Positions 23,304-47,426 of a stretch of 64,000 nucleotides of DNA are shown here, in pieces (position 1 is the stretch's first letter; each line of letters starts with the position of its first letter). The notes under the pieces were generated by a model. The model made no database searches, was not told the DNA's origin, and saw nothing but the letters and a program-made list of their open reading frames with translations. Origin of the DNA: Phaeocystidibacter luteus (GTDB taxonomy: Bacteria > Bacteroidota > Bacteroidia > Flavobacteriales > Schleiferiaceae). Made by a program: the position numbers and the translations under genes. The stretch lies in the NCBI RefSeq assembly GCF_008933115.1, contig NZ_WBVO01000006.1, forward strand, positions 124,001-188,000, in the 5' to 3' direction.

Positions 23304-24268
23304 GAACAGTTAAAAAAGTCGTCTTATTTCTAGCTGTGACTTCAATCTGCCTTTCATGCAATGAAGGTAATAGCACTGGGAGTAAGGACACAATCGTCAC
23401 TACTCACTACAATATCCACTTCGTACCGGACCTTTCGAATAGAGTTGACAAAAAGTCACTTAAGCCGGGGTCAATTCACGATACGGTTATATTCAATGAA
23501 TTCATTGATCTGTACGTTCCATTGATTTATCCGCACCGGCGAAGAATACAGCAAAAAGATATTTTACAACTTACCAGAATTAGCTCAGAGAACTCTGTTC
23601 AAGGGCCAAATATAGTCAGTCTAAAATCGTTTGAATTTGATCAAGGAAGTCGGATACGCTATGTAAGAGACTCATCTCAAGGTCTTATTAATGACCTAAG
23701 TGAATTAAAACTTACGATAGCGAGAACGTATGAATCTCGCAATTCAAGACATACCTGGTCAGGAGATATAACATCTTTACTTCAGAACTCGATAACAAAC
23801 CTGAATACCATAACAGATACTATAAATAGCTCAAATGATGAAGCAAACTTCATCGAGGTTTATGACAACATAATAGTATTGTTGACCGACGGATATATTG
23901 AGTATGGTTCATACAGCGAGGAATTCCGCAATCGATTTTATCATCTAGATAGTCGAGTCATCAATAAGATTAGAGGCTTATGTAGAGAATCGAATATGAA
24001 TCCAAGTCAGGTGCTGGAAATGAATGATATGGGGTTAGTGCCAGTTGAAAACCCATTATTAAAGCACTATAAGTTCGTTGTACTTGAGTTCGACGATCGT
24101 TCGCTTTCGAAATCAGGAAGTGCCACCATAAGGCCTACGGACTTCGAAATTACGACCGCAGTTTGGAAGAAATGGTTTGAAGAATGTGGAATTCGTCAAT
24201 ATGCATTCTACCCAATTGGAGCCTCAAGCGCGGGCGAAATTATCAAGCAGCAAATTCTTGCCAATTAG
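23300..24268 (+). CDS. Lipoprotein coupled to the PLD membrane protein, VWA-like
   Basis: A 322-residue lipoprotein (lipobox ICLSCNEG) starting inside the stop of the PLD gene (ATGA). The mature part begins with a strand that ends in VPDLSNRVD and contains NIIVLLTDGYIEY further on. These look like the first strand with its D-x-S motif and the TDG loop of a von Willebrand factor A fold, although the MIDAS is not canonical. The protein would face the periplasm or outer membrane while the PLD domain of the partner is probably inside. No function can be assigned; the coupled pair is worth treating as one system. Confidence 0.75.
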   Translation: MRTVKKVVLFLAVTSICLSCNEGNSTGSKDTIVTTHYNIHFVPDLSNRVDKKSLKPGSIHDTVIFNEFIDLYVPLIYPHRRRIQQKDILQLTRISSENSVQGPNIVSLKSFEFDQGSRIRYVRDSSQGLINDLSELKLTIARTYESRNSRHTWSGDITSLLQNSITNLNTITDTINSSNDEANFIEVYDNIIVLLTDGYIEYGSYSEEFRNRFYHLDSRVINKIRGLCRESNMNPSQVLEMNDMGLVPVENPLLKHYKFVVLEFDDRSLSKSGSATIRPTDFEITTAVWKKWFEECGIRQYAFYPIGASSAGEIIKQQILAN

Positions 24269-24816: not shown

Positions 24817-25827
24817 ATGCCCAAGAACAAACTAGCATACATACGTTATCACGAGCTCGACAAATGCTTCTCAAGTCGAGCTAAGTTGTTTGACATTGAA
24901 GGCTTAGTAGAAGCTTGTAATGAAGCGATTTTCGAGAATAACGGTTCGGAAGGAGTGAAAAAAAGGCAGGTTTACGACGACATTCGCTTTATGGAAAGTG
25001 AATCTGGATGGTCAATCGAACTTGAAAGGCAAAAGCGGGGAAGGAAAGTTTACTATAAATACACTGACCCCAGTTTTTCAATTCGTGGAAAATCACTCAC
25101 ACCACAGGAGGCTTCTAGCATCAAGGAAACACTTGACATTCTTTCCAGATTTAAAGGCGTAGGATCTTTTGAATGGGTTGGAGAAACTCGAATCCGATTA
25201 CAAAAACTCTTTCCAGATAAATCAGAGGACATTAGTTCTGTAGTTCAGTTTGATCAGAACCCATATTTGATTGGCTTGGAGTTTTTGGATATTCTCATCA
25301 GCTCTACTCTAGAAAGGACTGTGCTGAATATCGAATACCAGTCCTTTAAGCATGAGAAACCCATCTCCCTTGTTATGAGTCCCTGGTTGCTCAAACAATT
25401 CAATAATAGATGGTTTCTTTTTGGCTTCAATCATGAAACTGCTAGAATGGTCAACCTTGGATTAGATCGTTTGATCAAGGTGAGTCCGAGCACTAAAAAC
25501 TTTGTTACAGATTCTGGAATTTACTGGGAAGAGTACTTCGAAGATGTGGTTGGAGTTACTGTTTTAGATAACATCCCTGTAGATCGTGTTATTCTAAAGG
25601 TTTCTAATACCTTATGGCCCTACATCAAGAGCAAGCCCATTCATGGCTCTCAAAAGGTCCTAGAAGAAAAGCAGAGTTACACCCTCTTGGAGCTTCACAT
25701 CAAGTTTAATTACGAATTTAAGTCATTGATTCTCTCTCACATGTCTCAAATAGAAATCCTCGAGCCAACCGCTTTACGAGACACAATTGGCGAAGAGGTT
25801 AAGAAGCTATTCTATAATTATTTCTAA
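24817..25827 (+). CDS. WYL-domain transcriptional regulator
   Basis: A 336-residue DNA-binding regulator. The N-terminus (about 1-80) is a winged-helix region with a KKRQVYDDIRFMES recognition segment. The WYL domain follows at about 150-260, with strands such as LNIEYQSF, SPWLLKQFNNRWFLFGFN and RLIKV. A WYL C-terminal domain completes it. WYL proteins control phage-defence operons and DNA-damage responses, often by sensing nucleic acid. The ATG at 24817 (MPKNKLAYIRYHELDKCFS) is chosen over the GTG-type extension to 24787 because the family starts there. It leads a five-gene same-strand run and probably regulates it. Confidence 0.92.
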   Translation: MPKNKLAYIRYHELDKCFSSRAKLFDIEGLVEACNEAIFENNGSEGVKKRQVYDDIRFMESESGWSIELERQKRGRKVYYKYTDPSFSIRGKSLTPQEASSIKETLDILSRFKGVGSFEWVGETRIRLQKLFPDKSEDISSVVQFDQNPYLIGLEFLDILISSTLERTVLNIEYQSFKHEKPISLVMSPWLLKQFNNRWFLFGFNHETARMVNLGLDRLIKVSPSTKNFVTDSGIYWEEYFEDVVGVTVLDNIPVDRVILKVSNTLWPYIKSKPIHGSQKVLEEKQSYTLLELHIKFNYEFKSLILSHMSQIEILEPTALRDTIGEEVKKLFYNYF

Positions 25828-25888
25828 CTATGCAGAAAGAGTGCACACATGGGTCCAATCTTTGCCTCGTAATACTAACACACCTGTC

Positions 25889-28459
25889 ATGAGAGATTAC
25901 GCTGCTTCTGTAAATCCCGACTCCATCGAAAACGCTAACCGAGTTCTTAACAAACTGTTGAGCAACTGGCGAGGAAAAGTTGCCTCTGAACAATACTCCC
26001 TTCTATTTTTTCTATTACATCTGCACTATGAAGGCAGGTTGCACACTGTGGCTCCTCTTGTCGAAAACCCACAAGCCGATATTGAATTGCACTCGACACA
26101 AATGTCAGACAAACATGACGAAATGCTCAGAAGTGCAGAAGAGATTCTACTGCCCTCTTTACGAAGAATTAATGGTCAAGCCCTTTCAATTGCTCTAATC
26201 TATCTTGATGAAGTTGAAGACTTCAATGAGGAAGAGTACATGCTAATTGCCGAAGAGCTTCTAAATAGACTGAGTTATGACCAAGCTCGAGTGACAGATT
26301 TGGGCATGTTGCCTGACACTGTGTCAAGTATTATGAGGTCTATTGCAGGTGTTTTCTTTCATAATTTGCGGATCTACAATCCATTTTCAGGATATGGTTC
26401 CCTGATCGATATTGATGGGTGTAAATATTTACTCAGTCAAGAAATCAATCAAGACATATGGGCATATCAAGTATTGCGAACTCATGCAAATGATCGCATC
26501 ATATATGAGAATCATCACATTGTCAACGCTGACTCCATTTCGAGTTGGCCTGTGAATGAATCGTTTGATATGGTGATTTCTGCGCCTCCTCTAAACATGA
26601 ATCTTACGCCTAGAGAATATACTGGGCTTAAGCGAGCGAGAGACTATGAAACCTTTATGATGGAGAAATTTATCCAAACTCCGGGCATCAAGGAAATGGT
26701 CTTACTTGTATCAGAATCCAAGCTTTTTGCAAGCGATAGCGGAACGAAATCCATTCGGGAAGAACTGATTAATTCAGGCTATCTTGATACCATCGTTTCG
26801 CTTCCTGCAGGTATTCTGACTAACGCTTCTGTAAAAACTTCAATATTGAAGCTTTCTAGAAACAATGATCAGAAGCAAACGAGAATTGTTCAATTAGAAG
26901 ATTTCATCCAAATATCCCGCTACAATGGTGTAACAACCGAATATAGCGCCATCTCCAATGTTCTCAAGGGAAAGCAAGAGGTTGAACTAGTGAAAACTGT
27001 TTCGATTGATGATCTTGAAAAGAATGATTTTCAAATTCACACCAGACTGCTTTTTGAGAAAGAGGTCAAAGGCGTAGAACTTGGCGAAATACTTGAAGTG
27101 GCTGATCTTGTTTCAAAGAACGTCAGAGCTAACGAGAAGCACTATCGCCTTGGACGATTTAAGGCAGATAAACTTCATGCCACGGCTACAATTCCTGATA
27201 CAAAAACAAAAGGTGAGATTAGCACCAGAAAATCACCAAACCCTCCAGAAAACCTATACCAAGGCAAGCTATTAGTGATTCCTAATACTCCTGGATCAAG
27301 CTGGAAACCGTTTTTCATTGACACGAAGAATGAAGCAATGGCTTTAGATGTCTATCATTGGGTTTTCACAACGAAGAGAGATGATGTGAATCTCCAATTC
27401 TTAGCCATGGAACTACATGAGGATTATATCTTGGAACAGGTTCGTAACCGAAGTTATGGATCGGTGATAGGCCGAATCATTCTGGGGGGCGTTTTAAGTA
27501 TAAAAGTTGACCTTCCAAGTATTGAGGAGCAAAACTCAATTATAAACGGAATCAGAGTTGCCCAAAAGCAATTAGATGAAGCTTTGACTCAAAGAAACAG
27601 GCTAGCTCATGATATAATTTCTGAGAAGGACAGAGGTGTCCGAGAGTTAAAACACGCATTAGGAACACCTATGCGAAACTTCTCTAGCAACCTTCGACTA
27701 CTTCATAGAATACTCGATTTGGGGCCGTTTGATCAAGATCTTCAAGTAGATTTAGGAAACAACACTCATAGATCTATCTCTGAAATCATGAATCGGTTAA
27801 ATGAAGAAGTAAGGAGAACAGGGGCCTTACTAAAGAAAAGCACAACTAGTCTTGCGCCAAAAGATGACGATATTGAGGAATTAAACGTCATTGAAACCTT
27901 CACCGAATACTATGAACGGAAGAAAGCTGAACTACTTGATTCCAGTATCGAACTGAGACTAAACATTAGTAAGAACATCAAAGAAGCTGTGGTTGACATG
28001 GGTGGTGAGAAACTTGAGGTCTACTCATTCATTGGAAACAAAGATTTTATGTTTCATGGGCTAGATGCTATCGTAGAAAATGCTCAAAGGCATGGGTTTA
28101 TATCAGGGCAGCAAGGGATAATTGACATAAAGATTGACTTAGTTCCTAATGATGAACATAAGCTTCAAGTTTCTTTATATAATAATGGTGAGCGCCTTCC
28201 GGAAGGGTACTCTACAGATTCGTTTGTTCGAAGTGGAAGCACGGGCAATTCCACAACTGGCAATATGGGTTTGGGGGGGCATGAAATAAATGAGATGGTA
28301 ACATTTCACGCACAAGGTCTAAACAACGAAGTGCAAAAGTCAACGCTAGCCATAAGAAACGTGAAACAATCGCTCGAATACACTGTGGTTTGTGAGTTTG
28401 TCATTCCTCTTAAGAAAACATTATGGTCCCAATCTGAAATTACAACTCAAATCAAATGA
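25889..28459 (+). CDS. HsdM/HsdS-like protein with degenerate methylase motif fused to histidine kinase
   Basis: An 856-residue multidomain protein. Residues about 1-130 are helical like the HsdM N-terminus. An N6-adenine methylase fold follows, with SAM motif I NPFSGYGSL (164-172), but motif IV reads SAPPL (231-235) where active enzymes have NPPF/Y/W. A half-HsdS region (about 370-565) ends in IKVDLPSIEEQNSI. The last 290 residues are a histidine kinase: an H-box LKHALGTPMRNF (His589), an N-box DAIVENAQRHG (726-736), G1 NNGERLPEGY and G2 GNMGLGGHE. No membrane segment. It is coupled to the receiver gene by ATGA. It probably binds DNA as a type I-like sensor and signals by phosphotransfer. 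The frame continues upstream (GTG 25841, TTG 25787), so the start is uncertain. Confidence 0.85.
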   Translation: MRDYAASVNPDSIENANRVLNKLLSNWRGKVASEQYSLLFFLLHLHYEGRLHTVAPLVENPQADIELHSTQMSDKHDEMLRSAEEILLPSLRRINGQALSIALIYLDEVEDFNEEEYMLIAEELLNRLSYDQARVTDLGMLPDTVSSIMRSIAGVFFHNLRIYNPFSGYGSLIDIDGCKYLLSQEINQDIWAYQVLRTHANDRIIYENHHIVNADSISSWPVNESFDMVISAPPLNMNLTPREYTGLKRARDYETFMMEKFIQTPGIKEMVLLVSESKLFASDSGTKSIREELINSGYLDTIVSLPAGILTNASVKTSILKLSRNNDQKQTRIVQLEDFIQISRYNGVTTEYSAISNVLKGKQEVELVKTVSIDDLEKNDFQIHTRLLFEKEVKGVELGEILEVADLVSKNVRANEKHYRLGRFKADKLHATATIPDTKTKGEISTRKSPNPPENLYQGKLLVIPNTPGSSWKPFFIDTKNEAMALDVYHWVFTTKRDDVNLQFLAMELHEDYILEQVRNRSYGSVIGRIILGGVLSIKVDLPSIEEQNSIINGIRVAQKQLDEALTQRNRLAHDIISEKDRGVRELKHALGTPMRNFSSNLRLLHRILDLGPFDQDLQVDLGNNTHRSISEIMNRLNEEVRRTGALLKKSTTSLAPKDDDIEELNVIETFTEYYERKKAELLDSSIELRLNISKNIKEAVVDMGGEKLEVYSFIGNKDFMFHGLDAIVENAQRHGFISGQQGIIDIKIDLVPNDEHKLQVSLYNNGERLPEGYSTDSFVRSGSTGNSTTGNMGLGGHEINEMVTFHAQGLNNEVQKSTLAIRNVKQSLEYTVVCEFVIPLKKTLWSQSEITTQIK

Positions 28460-29586
28460 TTCAAGTACTCTGGATAGATGATCAGTACGATCAAATGAAG
28501 TCGTTTATCGAGGACGCTGCCATGCGTGGATTCACTTTTCACGCATTTAAGTCGGCAGAAGAAGGCTTACAATTTTTAGAAACCAACTTAGAACTGATAC
28601 AGGCAATCGTACTCGATGGAGTCTTCTTCAAATACGCCAACCAAAGCGGAGATTCAGCAGATGAGCGAGGTATTGGACATGCTATCCAAGGAATCAGTCG
28701 CATCTGTGGAAATACAAAAGACTTAACTCCTATTATTTACTCTGGACAAGCTTCCTTTACACATGAAGAGAACTCAATAATTACAAGTAACGAACTAAAG
28801 CTATTTGATAAGACAGACATTGATCATGATGAGCTATTGTTTGAGGCAATTTTAGATCATGTTGGCCAATCTGAAGATTTAACCATAAGAAAGGAGTTCG
28901 AATCAATCCTTGATCTTGCTAGCGCCTCATATCTTGGCCATAAGCACTTCCGCAGTCTACTGAAATTGCTAAGGCAGATTAAGTCAACCGAAAGGATAAG
29001 CAGCGATGAATATGCTATCACAGATATTCGAAAACTGATGGAATCGGTCTTTAAGAAGATGGTTGAAGTCAAAATGGTTCCTGAGGGGATGAGTTTTAAT
29101 GGTATTGCACGATTTTTTAATGGTGATGATTGGGTAAATGAACCAACTTTCACACCTAAAGTAATTGGATTTACACTATATCAATTGGCACAACTAGTTC
29201 AGGATGGAAGTCATGCTGAAGCCAATTCGGAAGGTGGGTTGAAATTAGAACTTGATGACTATATAAAAACTTCAAGTTCTGATTACCTGTATAGATCGAT
29301 GATTCATCAATTCATAGATACCCTAACCTGGGCGAAAAACGCCATTGATAATGCTCAATGGAATCCAAACTCGCAGTTTTGGAAGAAGAAAGAACATACT
29401 GGTCTAATAACAAGTATTAATGAAAAAGGATGGGGAACATTAGAATCAAGTGCATTTCCCAATATTCAAATGAGTGTCACAAAAAAGGATATGGAAGACA
29501 ACTTACTTAAAGAGGGAGATCAAGTTTATTGTCGAATTACCCAAGGAACGAAGTACTACATTAATGAAATAGAAAAGCGCTATTAA
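28456..29586 (+). CDS. Response-regulator receiver protein with cold-shock-like C-terminal domain
   Basis: A 376-residue partner of the methylase-like kinase; ATGA overlap with it. Residues 1-135 form a receiver domain with all active-site parts: acidic pair IDDQ (8-9), phospho-acceptor Asp54 in AIVLDGVFF, a Ser in TPIIYSGQ and the conserved Lys in KLFDKTD. The middle (about 140-310) is helical with no family I recognise. The last 65 residues (HTGLITSINEKGWGTLES..., DQVYCRITQGTKYYINEI) resemble a cold-shock/S1-type OB fold, which binds single-stranded nucleic acid. No helix-turn-helix output domain is visible. This suggests an RNA/DNA-binding or protein-binding output rather than a transcription factor. 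Confidence 0.85.
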   Translation: MIQVLWIDDQYDQMKSFIEDAAMRGFTFHAFKSAEEGLQFLETNLELIQAIVLDGVFFKYANQSGDSADERGIGHAIQGISRICGNTKDLTPIIYSGQASFTHEENSIITSNELKLFDKTDIDHDELLFEAILDHVGQSEDLTIRKEFESILDLASASYLGHKHFRSLLKLLRQIKSTERISSDEYAITDIRKLMESVFKKMVEVKMVPEGMSFNGIARFFNGDDWVNEPTFTPKVIGFTLYQLAQLVQDGSHAEANSEGGLKLELDDYIKTSSSDYLYRSMIHQFIDTLTWAKNAIDNAQWNPNSQFWKKKEHTGLITSINEKGWGTLESSAFPNIQMSVTKKDMEDNLLKEGDQVYCRITQGTKYYINEIEKRY

Positions 29587-29642
29587 TATTTATTATCTCC
29601 CCACAACAGAACCATCTTATACCTAATATTCCTTTCTCAACC

Positions 29643-31793
29643 ATGGCCACTCTCTACCCTGCCCTCGACCTGATCAGAGCTCATAAGGTTCAACCTGAAC
29701 TTGGCGAACTCCACCTTTTGGAGTTTTTAGACAGGGAGCTTGATGACAGCTTTGAAGTTTTCTTCAATCCTTTTATGAATGGTGACAGACCTGATATCGT
29801 CATCATGAAAAAAGGACAAGGCATTTTGATTATCGAGGTCAAAGACTACAACCTTGATTTATATGAACTAGATAAAAGGAAGAATTTCGTAGTAAAGAGT
29901 TCAGACACCAAAACCTTTAAGTCGCCTATCTCTCAAGTATTGAAGTACAAGGAGAATCTTTTTGAACTCCACGTAGACAAGCTGCTTGAGCACAAAATAA
30001 AAGACTATCGTTTCTTTAATGTGGTAAGTTGTGCTGTGTACTTCCACAATGCAAATTCCAGCAAAATTAACTCTCTATTAGTTGACCCATTTGAGCAAGA
30101 CAAGGGCTATCAGAAATTCTTGAATAAGAACATTGACCTAATAGGGCGAGATAACTTAAATACTAATGACTTCACGGACTTGCTTAAAAGGCGTTACCTA
30201 ATTTCTAATAAGCCCTCGTTCCTGTTTACGGACGATTTATACATCAGTGTAAAGCGCTTTTTGAAGCCGCCTCTTCACACTAGAGAACAAGGTGAAAACA
30301 TCAGATATAGCAGAAAGCAACTCGATATCATTTACGACGCCACACGAAAGGAGCAGCGTATCAAAGGCGTGGTAGGGTCTGGTAAAACTACAGTGTTGGC
30401 TGGTCGCGCTGTTCAAGCCCATAAAAGAACAGGCGGTAGAGTTTTAATCCTCACTTTCAATATCACTTTGAAGAATTTCATCCATGACAAAATCAGCAAG
30501 GTGAGGGAGGATTTTGCTTGGGAAAACTTCGTTATTACTAATTATCACCACTTCATAAATAGTGAACTCAACAACTTAGGAATCCCCATAGAGGTTCCTG
30601 ATGACTTTGACAATCTCGATTCACAGGCGAAGGATCGGTTCTTTGAATCCAATTATTACTCGAATAAAAAGCTATTCGAAGCAAACAAGGACGATATTCG
30701 TCCTTATGACGTCATCTTAGTTGATGAAATCCAAGACTATAAACGGCCTTGGATGGAAATATTGAAAGAGTACTTTCTACAACCAGGTGGTGAGTATGTA
30801 CTCTTCGGTGATGTCAAGCAAAACATCTACCACAATCAGACAGAAGGAAAAGATGTGGCCACTAATGTGAGAGGTGTTACTGAACTAAAGAATTGCTTCA
30901 GATCGGATTTCAAAATTAAAGACTTGGCCATCGAGTTTCAAAAGCAAGTATTTCAAGACAAATATGAAATTGATGATTTCAACAAAAGCACTACTCTTGA
31001 AATTGATTTCAAGACCACTAAAGAAGGTAGCATCAACTATATCCACCTGCCCAATGCTAACGCAGTAAGCAGCCTGTACACTATCATTCATCAAAATGCC
31101 ATAAATAAAGACATCCCTCCCAATGATATAACTATTCTCGGAAACTCTATCGAACTGCTTAAAGACTTTGATGCATACTATCGTTACGCCTCTGGGGAAA
31201 GGACAAACACAATGTTCGAGAGCCACGAAATGACATTTCGGATAGGTCTATCGAAATATGGTAAAAGCCGCCCAATGTGGGTGAAATCAGGATTGAGGCT
31301 GATTGAACGTGATATGGACTACAACGAGTCTAGAGGCTACAATCAACTTTGCAAGCTGCTGGTTGCCCATGACTTGTACATTATGAATCAAGAACAATTT
31401 GTAAAAGGGCTAACCTACTTATGTGAGAAATTCAAAACGAGCTTTGACGCGTTTATTAAGTTCAGTGATGATTACGGTTCAGAAATCAAAGCATTCAAAA
31501 CAGACTTTAGTACAGAAAGGCTCGGTCGTGAGCTAAAATCCATCAGAAACAATAAGAAAATACATTTCTATTTGAATAGCGGGACGATTAAAATCTCAAC
31601 CATTCACAGTTTTAAAGGCTGGGAATGCGATACTGTATTTCTAATCATCGAGGATCTAAATTTTAATGAGGCGTTTGATGAGATTCTTTATACAGGCATC
31701 ACAAGATCGAAATCTAATCTTGTGATTATCAATTACGGGAATGTAGAACAACATGAGAAACTTAAAGAAATGGTAGCAACTGTCAACCATTAA
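29643..31793 (+). CDS. NERD nuclease - UvrD-like helicase fusion
   Basis: A 716-residue protein. The N-terminal NERD domain (about 15-120) keeps the nuclease triad of the PD-(D/E)xK type: Asp51 in RPDIVIM and Glu65-x-Lys67 in ILIIEVKDY. A superfamily 1 helicase follows, with Walker A VGSGKTT (244-250), VDEIQD (about 365), and the C-terminal motifs ISTIHSFKGWECDTVF and YTGITRSKSNLVII. NERD-helicase fusions occur in phage-defence loci. It lies 56 bases after the receiver gene and 39 before the HNH gene on the same strand, so it is probably the destructive arm of that operon; that link is inference. Confidence 0.9.
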   Translation: MATLYPALDLIRAHKVQPELGELHLLEFLDRELDDSFEVFFNPFMNGDRPDIVIMKKGQGILIIEVKDYNLDLYELDKRKNFVVKSSDTKTFKSPISQVLKYKENLFELHVDKLLEHKIKDYRFFNVVSCAVYFHNANSSKINSLLVDPFEQDKGYQKFLNKNIDLIGRDNLNTNDFTDLLKRRYLISNKPSFLFTDDLYISVKRFLKPPLHTREQGENIRYSRKQLDIIYDATRKEQRIKGVVGSGKTTVLAGRAVQAHKRTGGRVLILTFNITLKNFIHDKISKVREDFAWENFVITNYHHFINSELNNLGIPIEVPDDFDNLDSQAKDRFFESNYYSNKKLFEANKDDIRPYDVILVDEIQDYKRPWMEILKEYFLQPGGEYVLFGDVKQNIYHNQTEGKDVATNVRGVTELKNCFRSDFKIKDLAIEFQKQVFQDKYEIDDFNKSTTLEIDFKTTKEGSINYIHLPNANAVSSLYTIIHQNAINKDIPPNDITILGNSIELLKDFDAYYRYASGERTNTMFESHEMTFRIGLSKYGKSRPMWVKSGLRLIERDMDYNESRGYNQLCKLLVAHDLYIMNQEQFVKGLTYLCEKFKTSFDAFIKFSDDYGSEIKAFKTDFSTERLGRELKSIRNNKKIHFYLNSGTIKISTIHSFKGWECDTVFLIIEDLNFNEAFDEILYTGITRSKSNLVIINYGNVEQHEKLKEMVATVNH

Positions 31794-31832
31794 TTCAAAT
31801 ACCAACATTAGAAACTGTCCTGAAACCGGTCC

Positions 31833-32408
31833 ATGACTTTTACAAACAAAGCCCCACACCCTACCTACAAAGAACTCATCATAGAGACTTCAAGCCCTAC
31901 TTATAAGGAACTACTGTCCACTCAAGAATGGCAATCTCGTCGGAAAGAAATAATCAAAAGGGATGGTAATAAATGCAGCAAGTGTGAAACTACTGCAACA
32001 AGCTCACAGTACAACAAGAACACCGGGAAATATGACCATTTCTGGTTCGGTGAAAATGAATTCCAGGAAGTCAGACACCCCAATGGAAGAATCGAGTATA
32101 CAAATTATCCTAAGGTGATCTTTGCTAGAGAAATGGTGAACTTACACGTGCATCACAACTATTATGTTGAAGGCAAGCTACCGTGGGAATATGAAGACCA
32201 CGCATTAATCACACTGTGTAATACTTGCCACTCTGATTTACATGAAGAAGAAACCATTCCCGTTTATTCAAGTGATGGTCGTAAAATTCCAAAACTCACT
32301 CTGTGCAGCAGGTGCAATGGCGCAGGATATTTGAAAGAGTTCAACTATCATTTGAGCGGGATTTGCTTCGAATGTAATAGAAGTCGATTTATCAACTATT
32401 CCTTATGA
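31833..32408 (+). CDS. HNH endonuclease with two zinc-binding Cys sets
   Basis: A 191-residue nuclease. The HNH (beta-beta-alpha metal) domain is centred on KRDGNKCSKCETT (about 47-59), LHVHHNYYVEGKLPWEYEDH (about 108-127) and LITLCNTCHSDLHEEE. These supply the CxxC...CxxCH zinc knuckle and catalytic His. The last 35 residues add a second Cys set, CSRCNGAGYL...CFECNRS, like a DnaJ-type zinc finger. It is the fifth gene of the run that starts with the WYL regulator. The intergenic stretch after it separates it from the type I operon. Confidence 0.86.
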   Translation: MTFTNKAPHPTYKELIIETSSPTYKELLSTQEWQSRRKEIIKRDGNKCSKCETTATSSQYNKNTGKYDHFWFGENEFQEVRHPNGRIEYTNYPKVIFAREMVNLHVHHNYYVEGKLPWEYEDHALITLCNTCHSDLHEEETIPVYSSDGRKIPKLTLCSRCNGAGYLKEFNYHLSGICFECNRSRFINYSL

Positions 32409-32550: not shown

Positions 32551-34299
32551 ATGACAAACGTCAAAGAATCTGCAAATTTTATTTGGTCTATTGCAGACCT
32601 ACTCCGTGGAGATTACAAACAAAGCGACTACGGAAAAGTAATCCTTCCTCTTACTGTGCTCCGAAGGCTCGATTGTGTTCTTGACTCAACAAAGAGTGAT
32701 GTTATCAAGAAGTACGAGCAAGTAAAGAGCATGAATATCCAAAACCTTGACCCTATTCTCAATAAGGTTGCCGGATACAACTTCCATAACAGGAGCAAGT
32801 TTGATTTTGACAAGTTGGTAGCTGACCCCAACAACATTGCCTCCAACCTCCGTAACTACATCAACGGTTTCTCTGAAGATGCAAGGGAAATCATTGAGCA
32901 ATTTGAATTTGATAACCAGATCACCAAGCTCGATGATGCCAATCTCCTTTTCATGGTATTGAAGCGATTCCAGGAAGTAGACCTCCACCCTTCTCGCATT
33001 TCAAGCATGGAAATGGGATACATGTTTGAAGAGTTGATCAGAAAGTTTGCGGAGATTTCTAACGAGACAGCCGGAGAACACTTTACTCCAAGGGAGGTAA
33101 TCAAATTAATGGTGAACCTGCTTTTCATGGATGACCGTGACATCCTTACCCAGAAAGGCATTGTGAAAACCATTTTTGATTGCTGTGCCGGTACGGGTGG
33201 AATGCTGTCCGTAGCTGAGGAATACTTAAACGAACTAAATCCGGATGCCAGACTGGAAGTATTTGGGCAGGAGATCAACCCCGAGTCATATGCTATCTGT
33301 AAATCAGACATGTTGATTAAGGGGCAAAACCCTTCTAACATTAAACGAGCGAACTCTCTCAAGCGCAAAGATTCTGAAAAGCAAAAGCCGGATCAATTCA
33401 TCAATCACAAGTTTGACTACCTCATCACCAACCCACCTTTCGGTGTAAAATGGAAAAAGGTAGAAAAAGAGGTGAAAGATGAGCATAATGAAATGGGCCA
33501 TGGTGGCCGCTATGGAGCAGGATTACCATCCGTGAGTGATGGTTCACTCCTCTTCTTGATGAACCTCATAAGTAAGATGAAACCGAAATCCGAAGGAGGT
33601 TCACGTCTGGCCATTGTTTTCAATGGATCACCACTCTTCTCCGGCTCACCAAGTAGCAAGAAAAACGAAAGCAGCATCCGCCAATGGGTGATTGAAAATG
33701 ATATGCTGGAAGCCATTGTGGCATTGCCTAACCAACTCTTTTACAATACCGGTATTGCAACCTACATCTGGATTCTGTGCAACCACAAACCGAAAGAGCG
33801 ACAAGGAAAGGTTCAGTTGATTAATGCAGTGGACTTCTACAAGAAAATGAGCAAGTCATTGGGTGATAAGCGAAACGAACTTAGCGATGACCACATCAAA
33901 AACATCACGCAAATTTATGGGGCATTTGAAGAAGGGGATTACTGCAAGATTTTCGACAATGAAGACTTTGGCTATCGAAAGGTGACCGTTGAACGGCCTA
34001 CCCTCAAAAATGGTAAACCGGTTTTAGATCGAAGTGGCAATCCCAAGCCTGATTCCAGCTTGAGGGATACGGAAAACATACCGCTCAAGGAAGACATTCA
34101 ATCATACATGGAACGAGAAGTATTGCCACATGTGCACGATGCTTGGGTAGATGAGAAAAAGACCAATGTGGGCTATGAAATCAACTTCACGAAGTATTTC
34201 TACCAATACAAGCCGCTTCGTTCATTGGAGGAGATACGTGCTGATATTTTGGCCTTGGAAGAGGATACAGAGGAATTAATTAAGGAAGTAGTTGAGTAG
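32551..34299 (+). CDS. hsdM: Type I restriction-modification methylase subunit HsdM
   Basis: A 582-residue N6-adenine DNA methylase subunit. The N-terminal helical domain (1-140, with ADLLRGDYKQSDYGKVILPL) is followed by the catalytic fold. SAM motif I is DCCAGTGGML (210-219), and the catalytic motif IV is intact, NPPFGVKW (294-301), unlike the methylase-like protein upstream. It modifies one strand position in the target set by HsdS and is needed with it for cleavage by HsdR. It ends with TAG directly abutting the ATG of hsdS, so the two are tightly coupled. Confidence 0.97.
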   Translation: MTNVKESANFIWSIADLLRGDYKQSDYGKVILPLTVLRRLDCVLDSTKSDVIKKYEQVKSMNIQNLDPILNKVAGYNFHNRSKFDFDKLVADPNNIASNLRNYINGFSEDAREIIEQFEFDNQITKLDDANLLFMVLKRFQEVDLHPSRISSMEMGYMFEELIRKFAEISNETAGEHFTPREVIKLMVNLLFMDDRDILTQKGIVKTIFDCCAGTGGMLSVAEEYLNELNPDARLEVFGQEINPESYAICKSDMLIKGQNPSNIKRANSLKRKDSEKQKPDQFINHKFDYLITNPPFGVKWKKVEKEVKDEHNEMGHGGRYGAGLPSVSDGSLLFLMNLISKMKPKSEGGSRLAIVFNGSPLFSGSPSSKKNESSIRQWVIENDMLEAIVALPNQLFYNTGIATYIWILCNHKPKERQGKVQLINAVDFYKKMSKSLGDKRNELSDDHIKNITQIYGAFEEGDYCKIFDNEDFGYRKVTVERPTLKNGKPVLDRSGNPKPDSSLRDTENIPLKEDIQSYMEREVLPHVHDAWVDEKKTNVGYEINFTKYFYQYKPLRSLEEIRADILALEEDTEELIKEVVE

Positions 34300-35655
34300 A
34301 TGAAAAGGTATCCATCATATCAAAGCACAAACGGAATAATTGAGGTAGAATTTCCTGAGAGTTGGCAAAAATCTCGGTTAAGGTTTATTGGCAACTTATA
34401 CGGAGGTTTGACGGGAAAGGCAGGTAATGATTTCAATGATCTTGGACACCCCAATAACCGCTCATTTATTCCTTTCACGAACGTCTTTAAAAACACCTAC
34501 ATCAATACCGATGACCTCCAGTTTGTGAAGATTCAAGAAGGGGAGCGACAAAATGAAGTAAGAAAGGGCGATTTATTCTTTCTGATGAGTTCAGAAGGAA
34601 GGGAAGATTTAGGCAAATGTTCTCTACTGAACGATGATCTAAACAGTGTTTATCTAAACAGTTTTTGCAAAGGGTTTCGGGTTTCAAGGGATGATTTCGA
34701 TCCAAAGTATTTAAACTATCTATTATTCGGAGATATTCACAGAAACTTGATAAGTATTGAAGGCCGAGGATTCACGAGAATAAACCTGCGGCAAGAATCT
34801 CTTCTAAATGCTTTAATCCTCAAGCCATCCATAGAAGAACAAACCCAAATCGCTCGCTACCTCGATTACAAAACAGCCAAGATTGATGCGTTGATTGAAA
34901 AGAAGCAGCGACTCATTGATCTACTGGAAGAAGAGCGAACGGCCATCATCAACCAGGCAGTCACCAAAGGTTTAAACCCTAATGTACCAATGAAGGATTC
35001 AGGTATTGAATGGCTGGGTGAGATACCGGAGCATTGGGAGATAATGAGAATTAGTCTCATAAGCAACTATCTATCCTATGGCTTCACGAACCCTATGCCA
35101 ACTACAAGTCAAGGCCCATATATGCTAACGGCCAATGATATAAAAGACGGCTTCATAGACTATGAGAATGCGAGAAGAACCGAACAGGATGCCTACGATA
35201 ATCTTCTTACAAAAAAGAGTAAGCCCTTTCTGAAGGATATTTTAATCACCAAAGACGGAACTCTTGGACGAGTGGCAATCTGTGATAGAGAAGATGTTTG
35301 TATTAACCAGTCTGTTGCAGTAATCCGAGTTGATCCAGACAAACTCATTCCAGATTTACTTCTTCATTTTCTTCGAGCAAGTTACTATCAAACTAAAATG
35401 GAATTTGATGCCGGAGGTACCACTATCAAGCATATTTACATAACTCGGCTTGCCAAGATGAAAGTTGCGTTCCCAATAGAAAAAAAAGAACAAGAAAGAC
35501 TGCTATTTGCGATCGAAGAAAGAATCAAATCTCATGACAAAAAACTCTCGGCCATTAGAAGAGAGGTCGAATTACTCCAGGAATACAGAACCGCTCTCAT
35601 CAGTGAAGTGGTTACCGGCAAAGTAGATGTCAGGGATGAGGTAATACCGGAATAG
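34300..35655 (+). CDS. hsdS: Type I restriction-modification specificity subunit HsdS
   Basis: A 451-residue DNA-recognition subunit with two target-recognition domains, each ending in a conserved helix. The first runs to about residue 180 (closing with LILKPSIEEQTQIARYLDYK), then a coiled spacer (KKQRLIDLLEEERTAIINQA). The second starts at EWLGEIPEHWE (about 233) and closes with VAFPIEKKEQERL and a matching coil. The half-repeats give the bipartite target. The sequence of the site cannot be read from the protein. Confidence 0.95.
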   Translation: MKRYPSYQSTNGIIEVEFPESWQKSRLRFIGNLYGGLTGKAGNDFNDLGHPNNRSFIPFTNVFKNTYINTDDLQFVKIQEGERQNEVRKGDLFFLMSSEGREDLGKCSLLNDDLNSVYLNSFCKGFRVSRDDFDPKYLNYLLFGDIHRNLISIEGRGFTRINLRQESLLNALILKPSIEEQTQIARYLDYKTAKIDALIEKKQRLIDLLEEERTAIINQAVTKGLNPNVPMKDSGIEWLGEIPEHWEIMRISLISNYLSYGFTNPMPTTSQGPYMLTANDIKDGFIDYENARRTEQDAYDNLLTKKSKPFLKDILITKDGTLGRVAICDREDVCINQSVAVIRVDPDKLIPDLLLHFLRASYYQTKMEFDAGGTTIKHIYITRLAKMKVAFPIEKKEQERLLFAIEERIKSHDKKLSAIRREVELLQEYRTALISEVVTGKVDVRDEVIPE

Positions 35656-35666
35656 AATATAAGCCT

Positions 35667-38600
35667 ATGGCACACGGAATACATACAGAAACCACCTTTG
35701 AGGCTGCGATTGAGGAAAGCCTCCTCAACCAAGGTGGATATTCAAAAGGGAATTCAGAAGATTTTGACCCTCAATTAGGCATCTTCCCTTCCTATGTCAC
35801 CCAATTCCTCCAAAATTCACAGCCAAAAGCTTGGGAGAAGATCACCAACATCCACAAGGATGAGGTAGAAAAGAAAGTGATCAGTCGATTGATCCGTGAA
35901 TTGAATCACAAAGGCACATTGAACGTTCTCCGGCATGGCTTCACTGATTATGGGGTTAAGTTCAAAATGGCCTTTTACATGCCCGAGAGCAGCTTAAACC
36001 CCGAAGCAGTTGAACTATATGGAAAGAATCATCTATCCGTTACCAGGCAGCTTTATTATGAGCGTCAAGGCAAAAACTCTTTGGACATGGTGTTGGCCTT
36101 GAATGGTCTGCCGATAGCCACTATTGAGCTTAAGAATCAGTTTTCAGGTCAGTCCGTTACCAACGCTAAAAAACAGTATGTCTATGACCGTGAACCTAAT
36201 GAACCCATCTTCCAATTCAAGAAACGTTCATTGGTCCACTTTGCCGTTGATACGGATGAGGCATTCATGACCACTAAGTTGGCAGGAAAGAAGACTCGTT
36301 ACCTTCCTTTCAATCTCGGTTACAATAACGGTGCAGGAAACCCTCCAAACAAAGATGGATATCGAACCTCCTACCTTTGGGAGTATGTCTGGACCAAAGA
36401 CAGCTTGATGGACATTGTTGGCAAGTTTCTTCACCTCAATGTGATAGAGTTTGAGCTTAATGGAGTCCGCAAGAAGAAAGAAACAATGATCTTTCCCCGC
36501 TTCCATCAAATGGAGGTAGTAAGAAAGCTCACCCAGGACGCCAGAGAAAAAGGTGCAGGAAGCAACTACCTCATCCAACACTCAGCCGGATCAGGAAAGT
36601 CCAATTCCATTGCCTGGTTATCCTATCGCCTATCGAGCTTGCATGACAAAGGAGACCAAAGAGTATTTGATTCGGTGATTGTCATCACGGATAGAAGGGT
36701 TTTAGATAGTCAGTTGCAAAACACCATCCATCAGTTTGAACACAAGGATGGTGTGGTCCAGAAGATTGACAAAGACTCACAACAGCTCGCTGATGCCATC
36801 ACAGCAGGATCAAATATCATCATCACCACTCTTCAAAAGTTTCCTTTTGTACTGGATAAAATTGGCGAAATACCAAACCGAAAGTATGCCGTAATCATTG
36901 ATGAGGCGCATTCTTCTCAAGGAGGTGAAGCCACCAAGAAAATGAAGGAGGTATTGACTGCCAAGTCGCTTGAGGAAGCTATTGAAGAAGATATGTCGAG
37001 CGGTCTCGACGAGGATGCTGAAGATGAAATCAGAACGTCTATGGAAGCCAGAGGCAAGCAAGACAACCTCAGCTTCTTTGCCTTCACAGCTACACCAAAA
37101 CCCAAGACCATTGAAGTGTTTGGCACACCGGATTCCAACGGTATCCCAAAACCCTTCCACCTCTACTCCATGAAACAAGCCATTGAAGAAGGCTTCATTC
37201 TGGACGTATTGAAAAACTACACCACCTACAAAACCTATTTCAAGCTCTCCAAGCAAATTGAGGATGACCCCAATGTGAACAAGAAGCAGGCTGCCCGAGC
37301 CATTGGGCGTTTCCTTTCACTTCACCCTCATAACTTGGCCCAGAAAGCTGAGGTGATGGTAGAGCATTTCAGGCAGGTGGTATCCAAGAGGATTGGTGGC
37401 AAGGCCAAAGCCATGGTTGTTACCGGATCAAGGCTTCATGCCGTTCGCTATAAAGAGGAGTTTGACAAATATATCAAAGCAAGAGGTTACACAGACGTCA
37501 AAACGCTGGTTGCCTTTTCTGGTAAGGTGATTTACGACAGCTACCCTGATGGAGTGACTGAAGTTGAATTGAATGGCTTTAAAGAGAAAGAGTTGCCAAA
37601 GAAATTCTCAACGGATGAATACCAAATTCTATTGGTAGCGGACAAGTATCAAACCGGGTTTGACCAACCTCTCCTTCATACGATGTATGTCGACAAGAAA
37701 TTAAGTGGTGTCAAATGCGTTCAAACGCTTTCTCGCTTAAATCGAATGCATCCAGGAAAGGAAGACACCTTCGTTTTGGATTTCGCCAATGAGGCAGAAG
37801 AAATCACCAACTCGTTCCAGCCTTACTATGAACTTACCACCGTTGAGGAAACCACCGACCCAAATCACCTCTATGATTTGAAGAGCGAGATTGAAAAAGC
37901 ACAAGTGATCTGGGAGACGGAAGTGAACTCCTTCTGCAATGTCTTTTTCAAGTCGGCAAAGACTCTTTCTGTAAAAGAACAAGGGAAGCTCAATGCTTTT
38001 ATTGATCCCGCTGTGGAGCGATTCAAACAGCTGCCTGAAGAAAGCAGCGATGAAGATGTGATTGGCAATGAGGTAACTCAAGAAAGCTTCAAGAATACCC
38101 TTCAATCCTTCACTCGGTTGTATTCCTTCCTTTCTCAAATCATGCCTTTCACGGACGTTGACCTGGAGAAGCTTTTCACCTACTCAAGATTCTTACTCAA
38201 GAAACTACCCCGAAAGAATCAGGCAGACCGGTTCAAGCTTGGTGATGAGGTTTCATTGGAGTATTACCGACTTCAGAAAATTGCTGAGCAAAGTTTAGTC
38301 TTGGAGGATCAGGAAGAATATGGGTTGGACGGAAGATCTGATGCAGGAATTCGATTAGCCAATAAAGAAGAGAAGGCTGCATTGTCTGAGATTATTGATG
38401 TTTTGAATAACCGCTTTGGAACAGAGTTCAATGATGCAGATAAGCTATTCTTTGATCAAATAGAGGAAGAGCTCATAGCTGATGCTCGTCTCACCCAACA
38501 GGCCCAAAACAATTCCATGGACAACTTCAAGTTTGGTTTTGATGATGTCTTTATGGACAAGCTAATCGCTCGCATGGACCAAAACCAGGACATCTTCAGC

Positions 38601-38687
38601 AAGATGATGGATGATAAAGACTTTGGAGGGTTGGTGAAGGATTACTTGTTGAATAAAGTTTATAATAGGCTACGGAAAACCCAATAA
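35667..38687 (+). CDS. hsdR: Type I restriction endonuclease subunit HsdR
   Basis: A 1006-residue motor and nuclease subunit. The N-terminal PD-(D/E)xK nuclease shows Asp140 and ELK (155-157) in LPIATIELKNQ. The translocase has Walker A HSAGSGKS (305-312), a DEAH motif in IDEAHSSQGG (about 412-421), TATP, and the C-terminal motif TGFDQPLLHTMYVDKKL. A helical C-terminal region binds the methylase core. Full length and with intact motifs, so the type I system should be functional. Eleven bases separate it from hsdS. Confidence 0.97.
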   Translation: MAHGIHTETTFEAAIEESLLNQGGYSKGNSEDFDPQLGIFPSYVTQFLQNSQPKAWEKITNIHKDEVEKKVISRLIRELNHKGTLNVLRHGFTDYGVKFKMAFYMPESSLNPEAVELYGKNHLSVTRQLYYERQGKNSLDMVLALNGLPIATIELKNQFSGQSVTNAKKQYVYDREPNEPIFQFKKRSLVHFAVDTDEAFMTTKLAGKKTRYLPFNLGYNNGAGNPPNKDGYRTSYLWEYVWTKDSLMDIVGKFLHLNVIEFELNGVRKKKETMIFPRFHQMEVVRKLTQDAREKGAGSNYLIQHSAGSGKSNSIAWLSYRLSSLHDKGDQRVFDSVIVITDRRVLDSQLQNTIHQFEHKDGVVQKIDKDSQQLADAITAGSNIIITTLQKFPFVLDKIGEIPNRKYAVIIDEAHSSQGGEATKKMKEVLTAKSLEEAIEEDMSSGLDEDAEDEIRTSMEARGKQDNLSFFAFTATPKPKTIEVFGTPDSNGIPKPFHLYSMKQAIEEGFILDVLKNYTTYKTYFKLSKQIEDDPNVNKKQAARAIGRFLSLHPHNLAQKAEVMVEHFRQVVSKRIGGKAKAMVVTGSRLHAVRYKEEFDKYIKARGYTDVKTLVAFSGKVIYDSYPDGVTEVELNGFKEKELPKKFSTDEYQILLVADKYQTGFDQPLLHTMYVDKKLSGVKCVQTLSRLNRMHPGKEDTFVLDFANEAEEITNSFQPYYELTTVEETTDPNHLYDLKSEIEKAQVIWETEVNSFCNVFFKSAKTLSVKEQGKLNAFIDPAVERFKQLPEESSDEDVIGNEVTQESFKNTLQSFTRLYSFLSQIMPFTDVDLEKLFTYSRFLLKKLPRKNQADRFKLGDEVSLEYYRLQKIAEQSLVLEDQEEYGLDGRSDAGIRLANKEEKAALSEIIDVLNNRFGTEFNDADKLFFDQIEEELIADARLTQQAQNNSMDNFKFGFDDVFMDKLIARMDQNQDIFSKMMDDKDFGGLVKDYLLNKVYNRLRKTQ

Positions 38688-44513: not shown

Positions 44514-45330
44514 GCGTCTACAGACTATCCTTTACGAAGTTGGAAAAGGGAACTATCCGACAACTTCCAACTTGTTGGATAAACTCGGGATGGAAAACGA
44601 CTCAAGCTCTGAACGTACGCTGAATCGCGACATGAAGGCATTGCGAGAAGACTATCTGATTGACATAGATTACGACAAAGGTCGAAAAGGATACACTTTA
44701 GAAAATGCCAACACAGAAGAAGTGGATCTCTTTTATCACATGAGCAACACGCTTCTCCTGAGTCATCAAATGCTGGACGCCGTTCGTGAAGGCAAGTTGA
44801 TGAGTGAGCACATTATCTCCAAATCCCCAAAAATCAAATTCGGAGAAAATGTACTATCACGCATTTACGAAGCAGTGGTGAATCGCCGCGAGGTTGTGAT
44901 TTCAGATTACTTCAGTACTTATAGCGGTAAATCATCATCCTATGAAGGTCACCCTTACCGGTTGATCGAATACCTCAACCGTTGGTACGTATACCTTTGG
45001 GTGCCTTCAAAGAATGACTTTCGATCCCTGAGCATAGAGCGGATTGAAAAGCTTGATGTGAAGCCCACAACATTCGAGCGTACCCAAGCACTGCCTAAAG
45101 AGCTATTCGAAGTCGTCGGTCTCAATTACTCAGAATCGTCGAAGAAAGAGCTAGTGAAGTTTAGAGTGCGTAAGCACACAGCAGGTTACATCGAGAATCA
45201 GCCTATTCATTCAAGTCAGAACGTCTATCAAGAAGATGATAAGTGGGTCTACTTTCAAATTGCCGTTCGACCCAATTACGAACTCAAGCAGCTCTTCAAA
45301 ATGCATGAGGGAAATCTAGAGGTACTTTAA
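44488..45330 (+). CDS. WYL-domain transcriptional regulator
   Basis: A 280-residue regulator, the second WYL protein in the island. A winged-helix N-terminus (about 1-70, with TLNRDMKALREDYLIDIDYD) precedes the WYL domain (about 125-210: EVVISDYFSTYSG, HPYRLIEYLNRWYVYLWV, SLSIERIEKLDV). Its start lies inside the DUF429 gene. It probably controls the DUF429 gene, or the divergent and convergent operons around it. Its 3' end overlaps the convergent AAA-protease gene by four bases. Confidence 0.9.
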   Translation: MNPALLKIKRLQTILYEVGKGNYPTTSNLLDKLGMENDSSSERTLNRDMKALREDYLIDIDYDKGRKGYTLENANTEEVDLFYHMSNTLLLSHQMLDAVREGKLMSEHIISKSPKIKFGENVLSRIYEAVVNRREVVISDYFSTYSGKSSSYEGHPYRLIEYLNRWYVYLWVPSKNDFRSLSIERIEKLDVKPTTFERTQALPKELFEVVGLNYSESSKKELVKFRVRKHTAGYIENQPIHSSQNVYQEDDKWVYFQIAVRPNYELKQLFKMHEGNLEVL

Positions 45331-47375: not shown

Positions 47376-47426
47376 TTGATTTTGAGCAAAGGAAGAAGGA
47401 GTGACCGCCAAGGGGTGTCGGTGAGG

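What the first reader, a model, noticed from the sequence alone, without database searches (positions are those of the whole stretch)
24817..32408. Candidate two-component defence system with a methylase-like sensor kinase
Five same-strand genes with small gaps: WYL regulator, HsdM/HsdS-like protein fused to a complete histidine kinase, receiver protein with intact DD/Asp54/Ser/Lys site and a cold-shock-like tail, NERD nuclease-helicase, and HNH nuclease. The methylase motif IV is APPL instead of NPPF/Y, while SAM motif I and the specificity-like domain remain. The kinase H-box, N-box, G1 and G2 are all present, and kinase and receiver overlap by ATGA. The reading is that a DNA-modification reader, no longer a working methylase, signals by phosphotransfer to a nucleic-acid-binding receiver and unleashes a nuclease-helicase. 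I know of no described system with this makeup; Detocs is a two-component defence system but with a different sensor.
Basis: partly seen in the sequence, partly recalled or inferred. Interest (0 to 1): 0.9.

Follow-up and report, generated by a model that had tools for sequence, protein, structure and literature searches.

The report
Methylase-built sensor kinase guarding restriction systems
Some Bacteroidota carry a protein built from a restriction methylase fused to a signalling kinase, with its own response regulator, usually just in front of an intact-looking DNA-restriction operon: an apparently undescribed way of wiring a bacterial immune system to a signal relay.

Summary
The unit drawn is wrong. 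In 37 de-duplicated loci (36 with the kinase; one stops before it near a contig end) the receiver follows in 34 of 34 that can be judged, WYL adjoins in 26 of 36, and a type I hsdM lies within five genes downstream in 25 of 34. NERD is in 2 loci, HNH in 2. In the window hsdM-S-R follows at 32551-38687, just outside the finding. Conserved module: WYL-MHK-receiver, mostly on type I restriction operons. The full catalytic motif [ND]PP[FYW] is missing in the window (APPL) and in 22 of 35 members; neighbouring HsdMs keep it in 26 of 26. The specificity-like domain is not hypervariable and the module does not co-evolve with its HsdM, so it probably does not read that system's own target; kinase and receiver do co-evolve. 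I favour a guard/second-line signalling arm (PrrC-PrrI-like logic); operon control is the main rival. I found no description in the PMC papers searched and no Pfam, NCBIfam or PADLOC model of the architecture. Phosphotransfer, signal and output are unproven.

The parts
24817..25827 (+). WYL/WCX transcription regulator, 336 aa
   Evidence: Pfam WYL 1.3e-8, WCX 8.6e-8; adjacent WYL in 26 of 36 judgeable loci
25889..28459 (+). MHK: type I methylase-like (about 8-390) + specificity-like TRD (about 400-540) + histidine kinase (about 560-856), 856 aa from ATG 25889; the longest ORF starts at TTG 25787
   Evidence: one uninterrupted modelled helix 545-611 joins the S-like coiled coil to the H-box helix
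26576..26602 (+). degenerate motif IV region, ISAPPLNMN in place of an NPPF/Y motif
   Evidence: 13 of 35 relatives keep [ND]PP[FYW], neighbouring HsdM 26 of 26
27653..27655 (+). codon of the phospho-acceptor candidate His589 (numbering from ATG 25889)
   Evidence: invariant in 28 of 28; position checked
28456..29586 (+). response regulator: receiver (about 1-125), helical domain (about 125-298), cold-shock-like tail (about 309-376)
   Evidence: directly downstream of MHK in 34 of 34 judgeable loci
29643..31793 (+). NERD nuclease-UvrD helicase, 716 aa; accessory, not conserved with the module
   Evidence: Pfam NERD 4.9e-9, PADLOC C3a187 NERD+UvrD 2.4e-51; near MHK in 2 of 37 loci
31833..32408 (+). 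HNH-like protein, 191 aa; accessory
   Evidence: motif by eye; no Pfam hit at 0.1; a relative in view in L091 only
32551..34299 (+). HsdM of a type I R-M system, motif IV TNPPFG intact
   Evidence: PADLOC MTase_I 4.5e-267
34300..35655 (+). HsdS specificity subunit
   Evidence: Pfam Methylase_S 2.4e-21
35667..38687 (+). HsdR restriction subunit
   Evidence: Pfam HSDR_N 2.3e-14 and SWI2_SNF2 1.6e-24; TIGR00348 hsdR 9.1e-54, below that model's curated cut-off

Best explanation
The conserved thing is a three-gene cytoplasmic signalling module, WYL-MHK-receiver, usually attached to type I restriction-modification operons. The sensor is a type I methyltransferase half-complex (M plus one S-like half) turned into a receptor: its S-type coiled coil runs straight into the kinase H-box helix, so a change in the methylase-like clamp can be read out as autophosphorylation. 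Phosphate passes to the neighbouring receiver, whose helical and cold-shock-like parts act on nucleic acid. I think it works as a guard or second line for restriction: because the module is swapped among unrelated type I systems and its specificity-like domain is not hypervariable, it most likely senses something common to infections that meet or defeat type I restriction (DNA-mimic anti-restriction proteins binding a methylase decoy, SAM loss, or a generic DNA state), then triggers a receiver-driven response; WYL controls expression. Shown here: domains, conserved phosphotransfer residues, gene order, kinase-receiver co-evolution, independence from HsdM, TRD not hypervariable. Inferred: phosphotransfer, the signal, the output, the anti-phage role.
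For: Receiver next in 34/34 judgeable loci, hsdM within five genes in 25/34, directly after the receiver in 20/34. 0 of 55 plain hsdM loci from the same scan carry a receiver of this family (E <= 1e-5), so it is no general hsdM neighbour. A faecal scaffold not among the 37 shows WYL-MHK-RR-HsdM-HsdS-HsdR. H/N/G2 boxes 28/28, receiver D9/D54/K119 28/28. Receiver domain vs kinase catalytic domain distances r=0.69 (p=0.002, the floor of 500 shuffles); partial given the M domain r=0.52 (p=0.001, floor of 1000). Sensor, kinase and receiver domain vs HsdM r from -0.07 to 0.07, receiver helical domain 0.16 (p=0.07). TRD identity tracks the M domain (mean 0.559 at M identity 0.50-0.65, 20 pairs) whereas HsdS averages 0.285 at HsdM identity 0.50-0.65 (51 pairs). 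An effector-type output in one relative: receiver fused to Schlafen AlbA_2 beside McrBC-like genes. Precedent: PrrC guards the type I system PrrI (PMC3710099, passages).
Against: No experiment. Nine of 34 judgeable loci have no hsdM downstream; two of these have other Hsd genes in view (L037 HsdR, L040 divergent hsdMSR), others lie by McrBC-like genes, NERD-UvrD, AAA/PLD-like/UvrD or a helicase, and for L090, L096 and L200 the neighbours were not named; so type I R-M is not obligatory. The receiver's output is unassigned: its helical domain matched nothing I could test and the tail is absent in 6 of 28. The G1 Asp is Asn in all 28, so nucleotide binding is not assured. Sensor and receiver domains correlate weakly with HsdS (r 0.25-0.28, p 0.010-0.024). 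A regulator of the operon would sit in the same place. The guard idea and its signal are by analogy only.
Confidence: 0.45

Rival explanations
1. Operon controller: MHK and receiver tune expression or activity of the restriction genes (for example hold back restriction after acquisition of the operon, or switch it on when unmodified DNA is sensed), with the cold-shock-like tail acting on mRNA or transcription.
For: Module lies 5' of hsdM on one strand, mostly with a WYL regulator; cold-shock-like tail suggests RNA or ssDNA binding; swapping between unrelated R-M systems also fits a generic controller.
Against: No helix-turn-helix family among the 25 of 26 Pfam families shown for 28 receivers; loci without hsdM exist; one receiver carries a Schlafen AlbA_2 domain, an effector-type output.
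Confidence: 0.3
2. One reading: the receiver unleashes the adjacent NERD nuclease-helicase (and HNH) as effectors of one five-gene defence system.
For: Same strand, short gaps; NERD-UvrD also lies downstream of MHK-receiver in L156, there split over two ORFs.
Against: NERD in 2 of 37 and HNH in 2 of 37 loci; NERD-UvrD relatives stand without annotated kinase or receiver on the two plasmids inspected, of 34 records matched.
Confidence: 0.1
3. MHK reads the modification state of the recognition site of its own R-M system.
For: M and S-like folds kept; positions G168, E185, D227, P233, P234 (around the cofactor and base site, by recalled motif knowledge) conserved in at least 90%.
Against: TRD not hypervariable and not co-varying with HsdS once the M domain is allowed for (partial r=0.12, p=0.17; without that correction r=0.28, p=0.016); no co-variation with HsdM.
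Confidence: 0.08
4. MHK is still a regulated methylase (in members with NPPF/Y) or a decayed relic, with kinase parts used only structurally.
For: 13 of 35 keep [ND]PP[FYW]; G1 Asp absent in 28 of 28.
Against: Invariant H, N and G2 boxes, invariant receiver site and kinase-receiver co-evolution point to selected phosphotransfer.
Confidence: 0.07

Closest known systems
Detocs (DtcA-DtcB-DtcC; recalled, no paper on it was read)
   Same: A cytoplasmic histidine kinase and receiver used for anti-phage defence.
   Different: Detocs as recalled has a repeat-domain sensor, a buffering receiver and a nucleotide-degrading effector; here the sensor is a type I methylase/specificity relative and the usual neighbours are hsdMSR. 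No Detocs name is among the PADLOC hits shown (25 of 39 for MHK, none for the receiver); whether that 2023 library holds Detocs was not checked.
PrrC-PrrI (anticodon nuclease guarding a type I R-M system)
   Same: Accessory module inside hsdMSR loci that acts when restriction is inhibited (PMC3710099 passages).
   Different: PrrC is one ABC-ATPase-HEPN RNase held by the R-M complex; here a phosphorelay with a methylase-derived sensor, exchangeable between unrelated R-M systems.
Type I methyltransferase HsdM-HsdS
   Same: Fold of the M domain (Z 32.7) and TRD; perhaps the cofactor pocket.
   Different: Fused kinase; full catalytic motif missing in 22 of 35; TRD not hypervariable.
MADS (methylation-associated defence system)
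   Same: Weak hits to mad2/mad5 through the methylase and S-like domains.
   Different: Far below the NCBIfam cut-off (18.4 vs 400 for MAD5).
Schlafen fused to a minimal histidine kinase in BREX loci (PMC12839542, passages only)
   Same: Histidine kinase module in a defence locus.
   Different: Kinase fused to the RNase itself, no methylase sensor mentioned.

Membership tests
Two-component system (histidine kinase + response regulator) | H-box His on a dimerisation helix | tested here: met
   H589 in 28 of 28, on modelled helix 545-611
Two-component system (histidine kinase + response regulator) | HATPase domain with N, G1, G2 boxes | tested here: inconclusive
   N731 and G794-x-G796 28/28; G1 is N-x-G, not D-x-G, in 28/28; profile matches kinases 3a0r 1.7e-15, 4i5s 1.1e-13. 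That natural kinases with Asn here exist (AgrC type) is recalled only
Two-component system (histidine kinase + response regulator) | Receiver with acidic pair, phospho-Asp, Ser/Thr, Lys | tested here: met
   D9, D54, K119 28/28, D8 at least 90%; S/T before G97 in every row of the printed alignment; fold Z 16.1
Two-component system (histidine kinase + response regulator) | Phosphotransfer between the two | not testable with these tools
   Indirect only: adjacency 34/34 and co-evolution
Type I DNA methyltransferase (HsdM) | Motif IV [ND]PP[FYW] | tested here: not met
   Window APPL; 13 of 35 relatives have it. Not filed as a methylase
Type I DNA methyltransferase (HsdM) | Motif I DPxxGxG | tested here: not met
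   Window YNPFSGYG: Asp to Asn, GxG kept; Asp in 5 of 35 relatives vs 26 of 26 HsdM (25 loci were found with patterns partly on this motif, so the family count is biased)
Detocs | DtcA-type sensor (repeat domain, recalled) | tested here: not met
   Sensor half is methylase/TRD by Pfam and fold
Detocs | DtcC-type effector | not tested
   No DtcC model was searched for by name; only the PADLOC scan of ten window proteins
MADS | MAD2/MAD5 above curated cut-off | tested here: not met
   MHK scores MAD5 18.4 vs cut-off 400; MAD2 not listed at E <= 0.1 in NCBIfam
HEPN RNase (for the receiver's helical domain) | Conserved Rx4-6H motif | tested here: not met
   Invariant H253 has no conserved Arg 5-7 residues before it; R192-x4-H occurs in some rows only. 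The fold of this part was not tested alone

The most novel reading that the evidence does not exclude
A methylase-shaped decoy receptor: MHK mimics the DNA-binding clamp of type I methyltransferases so that phage anti-restriction proteins (DNA mimics such as Ocr or ArdA, or SAM-destroying enzymes) or infection DNA act on it, and it reports this by phosphorelay to a nucleic-acid-acting receiver. This would be a bacterial guard/decoy immune receptor that works through two-component signalling and is exchangeable between restriction systems.
Probability: 0.25. Interest if true: 0.95.

Novelty: new variant of a known kind. Interest (0 to 1): 0.8.

Why it matters
If right, type I restriction systems of some Bacteroidota carry a transferable signalling arm whose sensor was made from the restriction enzyme's own methylase. 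That would link the classical bacterial immune system to two-component signalling, give a concrete candidate for how cells notice that restriction is being evaded, and offer a natural example of a DNA-methyltransferase fold used as a receptor. The two main readings (guard or controller) can be told apart by single-residue mutants.

Tried and rejected
Five-gene unit: rejected on gene-order counts. Sequencing or start error fusing two genes: rejected, the kinase is in the same ORF in 36 of 37 loci. Sensor reading its own R-M target: disfavoured. No kinase appears among the 50 Foldseek rows shown for MHK because methylases fill the list; VIA showed 4i5s. Outside Bacteroidota: 60 of 299 genomes of the phylum of G741 (a Marinobacter genome) match at E <= 1e-40, but every listed match ends by profile position 420 of 824, so covers the methylase part only; viral contigs gave 2 loci with methylase-part matches only. 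The genome-contig scan took peptide patterns from four members and kept 80 of 159 confirmed hits, so distant members are missed; counts of motif I are biased by those patterns. Overlaps between MHK and receiver (19 of 34) use the longest ORF, so they are an upper bound. Papers: searches (PMC open licences only; some lists were capped at 20) listed no title or abstract start that describes this module; I judged by these listings except for passages of PMC12839542, PMC11229360, PMC7159879, PMC13092281 and PMC3710099. PMC13092281 mentions in a figure legend a predicted defence system with HATPase and REC domains whose make-up I could not see or compare. PMC12255303 (a repressor of R-M genes) was seen in a listing only.

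Rows dropped before counts: duplicates L032 (98% to L093), L033 (= L076), L035 (= L088), L050 (= L082), L094 (= L095); L169 and L201 (no MHK); L209 was found later and is not in the 37. The co-evolution test used the 25 loci with MHK, receiver, HsdM and HsdS (L040 left out by hand because its hsdMSR is divergent). The motif count used 35 MHK, made before L168 and L200 were added, L089 included. The iterated HsdM profile swallowed some MHKs; the tallies use the first-pass names where available. The plain-hsdM control used stricter limits (receiver 1e-5, WYL 1e-20) than the locus tally (1e-4, or 1e-3 for the four loci named only), and several control loci are shorter than 20 kb.

Full report
WHAT IS THERE. 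The five genes are as described. In the window they run straight into hsdM (32551), hsdS (34300) and hsdR (35667), all on the + strand, in an island that also holds DUF262-type, GIY-YIG-like and McrBC-like genes (several of these names are by eye from the ORF lists). The window lies on contig C24 of a 3.2 Mb genome. Its family is probably that of a 'Cryomorphaceae bacterium', because G526, of the same family, holds a 3,197-base contig identical to that named record.

DOMAINS. Alone, the window protein hits only N6_Mtase in Pfam. Across 28 aligned relatives, N6_Mtase is found in 28, HATPase_c in 26 and Methylase_S in 21 at E <= 0.1. A kinase-region profile finds solved histidine kinases (3a0r 1.7e-15; 4i5s 1.1e-13). 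The model of MHK (mean pLDDT 76.5, pTM 0.59) has one helix from 545 to 611 that carries the S-type coiled coil into the H box; residues 8-390 align to a type I M subunit (7vru_A Z 32.7, rmsd 3.3, 375 aligned) and 582-842 to 4i5s (Z 16.8, rmsd 12.2, 212 aligned, so probably several rigid pieces). The receiver model (pLDDT 78.9, pTM 0.58) has a clear receiver, a helical middle part and a small beta-rich tail; the profile's tail hits cold-shock proteins weakly (E 0.0072-0.041).

CATALYTIC RESIDUES. Invariant in 28: K473, L505, Q548, H589, N731, A732, N765, G767, G794, G796. The G1 Asp is Asn in every member. Receiver D9, D54, G97, K119 are invariant. Methylase motif IV: [ND]PP[FYW] in 13 of 35 MHK and 26 of 26 HsdM of the same loci; motif I Asp in 5 of 35 and 26 of 26 (the motif I count is biased by the search patterns). 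G168, E185, D227, P233 and P234 are conserved in at least 90%, so a cofactor pocket may persist.

GENE ORDER. Searches of 395 Bacteroidota genomes with the protein, of 395 genomes of the same order with a profile, of genome contigs, of plasmids, and of the same 395 with receiver and kinase profiles gave 37 de-duplicated loci. The kinase part is present in 36; L089 stops before it near its contig end. The receiver is next on the same strand in 34 of 34 with a downstream gene; 19 of 34 overlap (longest-ORF starts, so an upper bound). WYL is adjacent in 26 of 36 and within six genes in 30 of 36. hsdM lies within five genes downstream in 25 of 34 (directly after the receiver in 20), hsdS in 25, an HsdR-like gene in view in 24. 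Nine of 34 lack a downstream hsdM: L037 (HsdR beside it), L040 (divergent hsdMSR), L041 (McrBC-like), L156 (NERD-UvrD), L168 (AAA_15, PLD-like, UvrD), L091 (DEAD helicase, AAA_15), and L090, L096, L200, whose neighbours met none of my few profiles and were not scanned with Pfam. NERD: window and L156. HNH: window and L091. As a control, none of 55 plain hsdM loci from the same scan holds a receiver of this family at E <= 1e-5 or a WYL at E <= 1e-20. A faecal scaffold filed as phage shows WYL-MHK-RR-HsdM-HsdS-HsdR.

CO-EVOLUTION. Over 25 loci, receiver and kinase distances correlate (REC vs catalytic domain r=0.69, p=0.002; partial given the M domain r=0.52, p=0.001; REC vs H-box helix partial r=0.56, p=0.001; these p values are the floors of 500 and 1000 shuffles). 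REC also correlates with the M domain (0.61; partial given the catalytic domain 0.34, p=0.007). Sensor, kinase and receiver domain are uncorrelated with the HsdM of the locus (r between -0.07 and 0.07); the receiver's helical domain gives r=0.16, p=0.07. HsdM and HsdS correlate with each other (r=0.55). Weak correlations with HsdS (M 0.27, p=0.010; TRD 0.28, p=0.016; REC 0.25, p=0.024) remain; for the TRD it is not significant once the M domain is allowed for (partial r=0.12, p=0.17). Sensor halves and kinase halves recombine: L072 and L076 share 73% in the M domain, 59% in the TRD, but 31% in the catalytic domain. The TRD-like domain is as conserved as the M domain (0.559 mean identity at M identity 0.50-0.65), unlike HsdS (0.285 at HsdM identity 0.50-0.65; whole HsdS was used, which if anything raises the figure).

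READING. The module is an exchangeable two-component pair with a methylase-derived sensor, preferentially coupled to type I R-M. Because it does not follow its HsdM and its TRD is stable, the signal should be generic. A guard or second-line role follows the PrrC-PrrI logic (PMC3710099, passages); an operon-controller role is the main rival. The Schlafen-fused receiver in L041 (SLFN_AlbA_2 6.4e-15) favours an effector-type output in at least one relative. NERD and HNH are best seen as cargo: of 34 plasmid records with a NERD-UvrD relative I looked at two, and neither shows an annotated kinase or receiver within 5 kb (gene tables incomplete).

DISTRIBUTION. With the receiver profile 11 of 395 Bacteroidota genomes match at E <= 1e-12; G289, which has an MHK, is missed by it. 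All 25 best loci of the genome-contig scan (L072-L096) are titled as Bacteroidota. 0 of 299 genomes of a Marinobacter's phylum show a listed match beyond the methylase part.

NOVELTY. No Pfam, NCBIfam or PADLOC hit shown covers the architecture (the PADLOC list for MHK shows 25 of 39). Nine full-text searches listed no paper on it; subscription papers and preprints were mostly not searchable, so a description elsewhere is possible. I rate it a new variant of a known kind (two-component signalling attached to restriction) rather than categorically new, because mechanism and signal are unproven.

Noticed in passing
L169:7759-10974 (G066:C124): A type III-A CRISPR-Cas locus (Csm1-5, TIGR02221 family protein, Cas6) encodes a 763-aa protein with a C-terminal histidine-kinase-like ATPase directly followed by a receiver protein of the same family as the window's (9.2e-31). 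A two-component pair inside a type III CRISPR operon.
   Followed up: partly
L041:2438-3385 (G289): The receiver beside an MHK is fused to a Schlafen AlbA_2 domain (6.4e-15) and is followed by McrB-like and McrC-like genes.
   Followed up: partly
L072:10001-12430 versus L076:10001-12490: Similar sensor halves (73% in the M domain) but quite different kinase halves (31%): sensor and kinase modules recombine.
   Followed up: partly
L209:6608-17476: An 'UNVERIFIED Bacteriophage sp.' faecal scaffold carries the full WYL-MHK-RR-HsdMSR cluster.
   Followed up: partly
L040:4946-11876 (G138): MHK with a weak N-terminal HARE-HTH match (below its cut-off), preceded by a NACHT NTPase and a divergent hsdMSR.
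   Followed up: no
L096:7568-11959: An MHK-like ORF of 1463 aa with a long extra N-terminal part of unknown kind.
   Followed up: no
window 21372-24268: A PLD-like protein with membrane-like stretches (by eye) followed by an overlapping lipoprotein-like gene, upstream of the module; role unknown.
   Followed up: no
window 45327-47411 (-): ORF that by eye joins an AAA+ ATPase part to an HEAGH metalloprotease-like part, inside the island.
   Followed up: no
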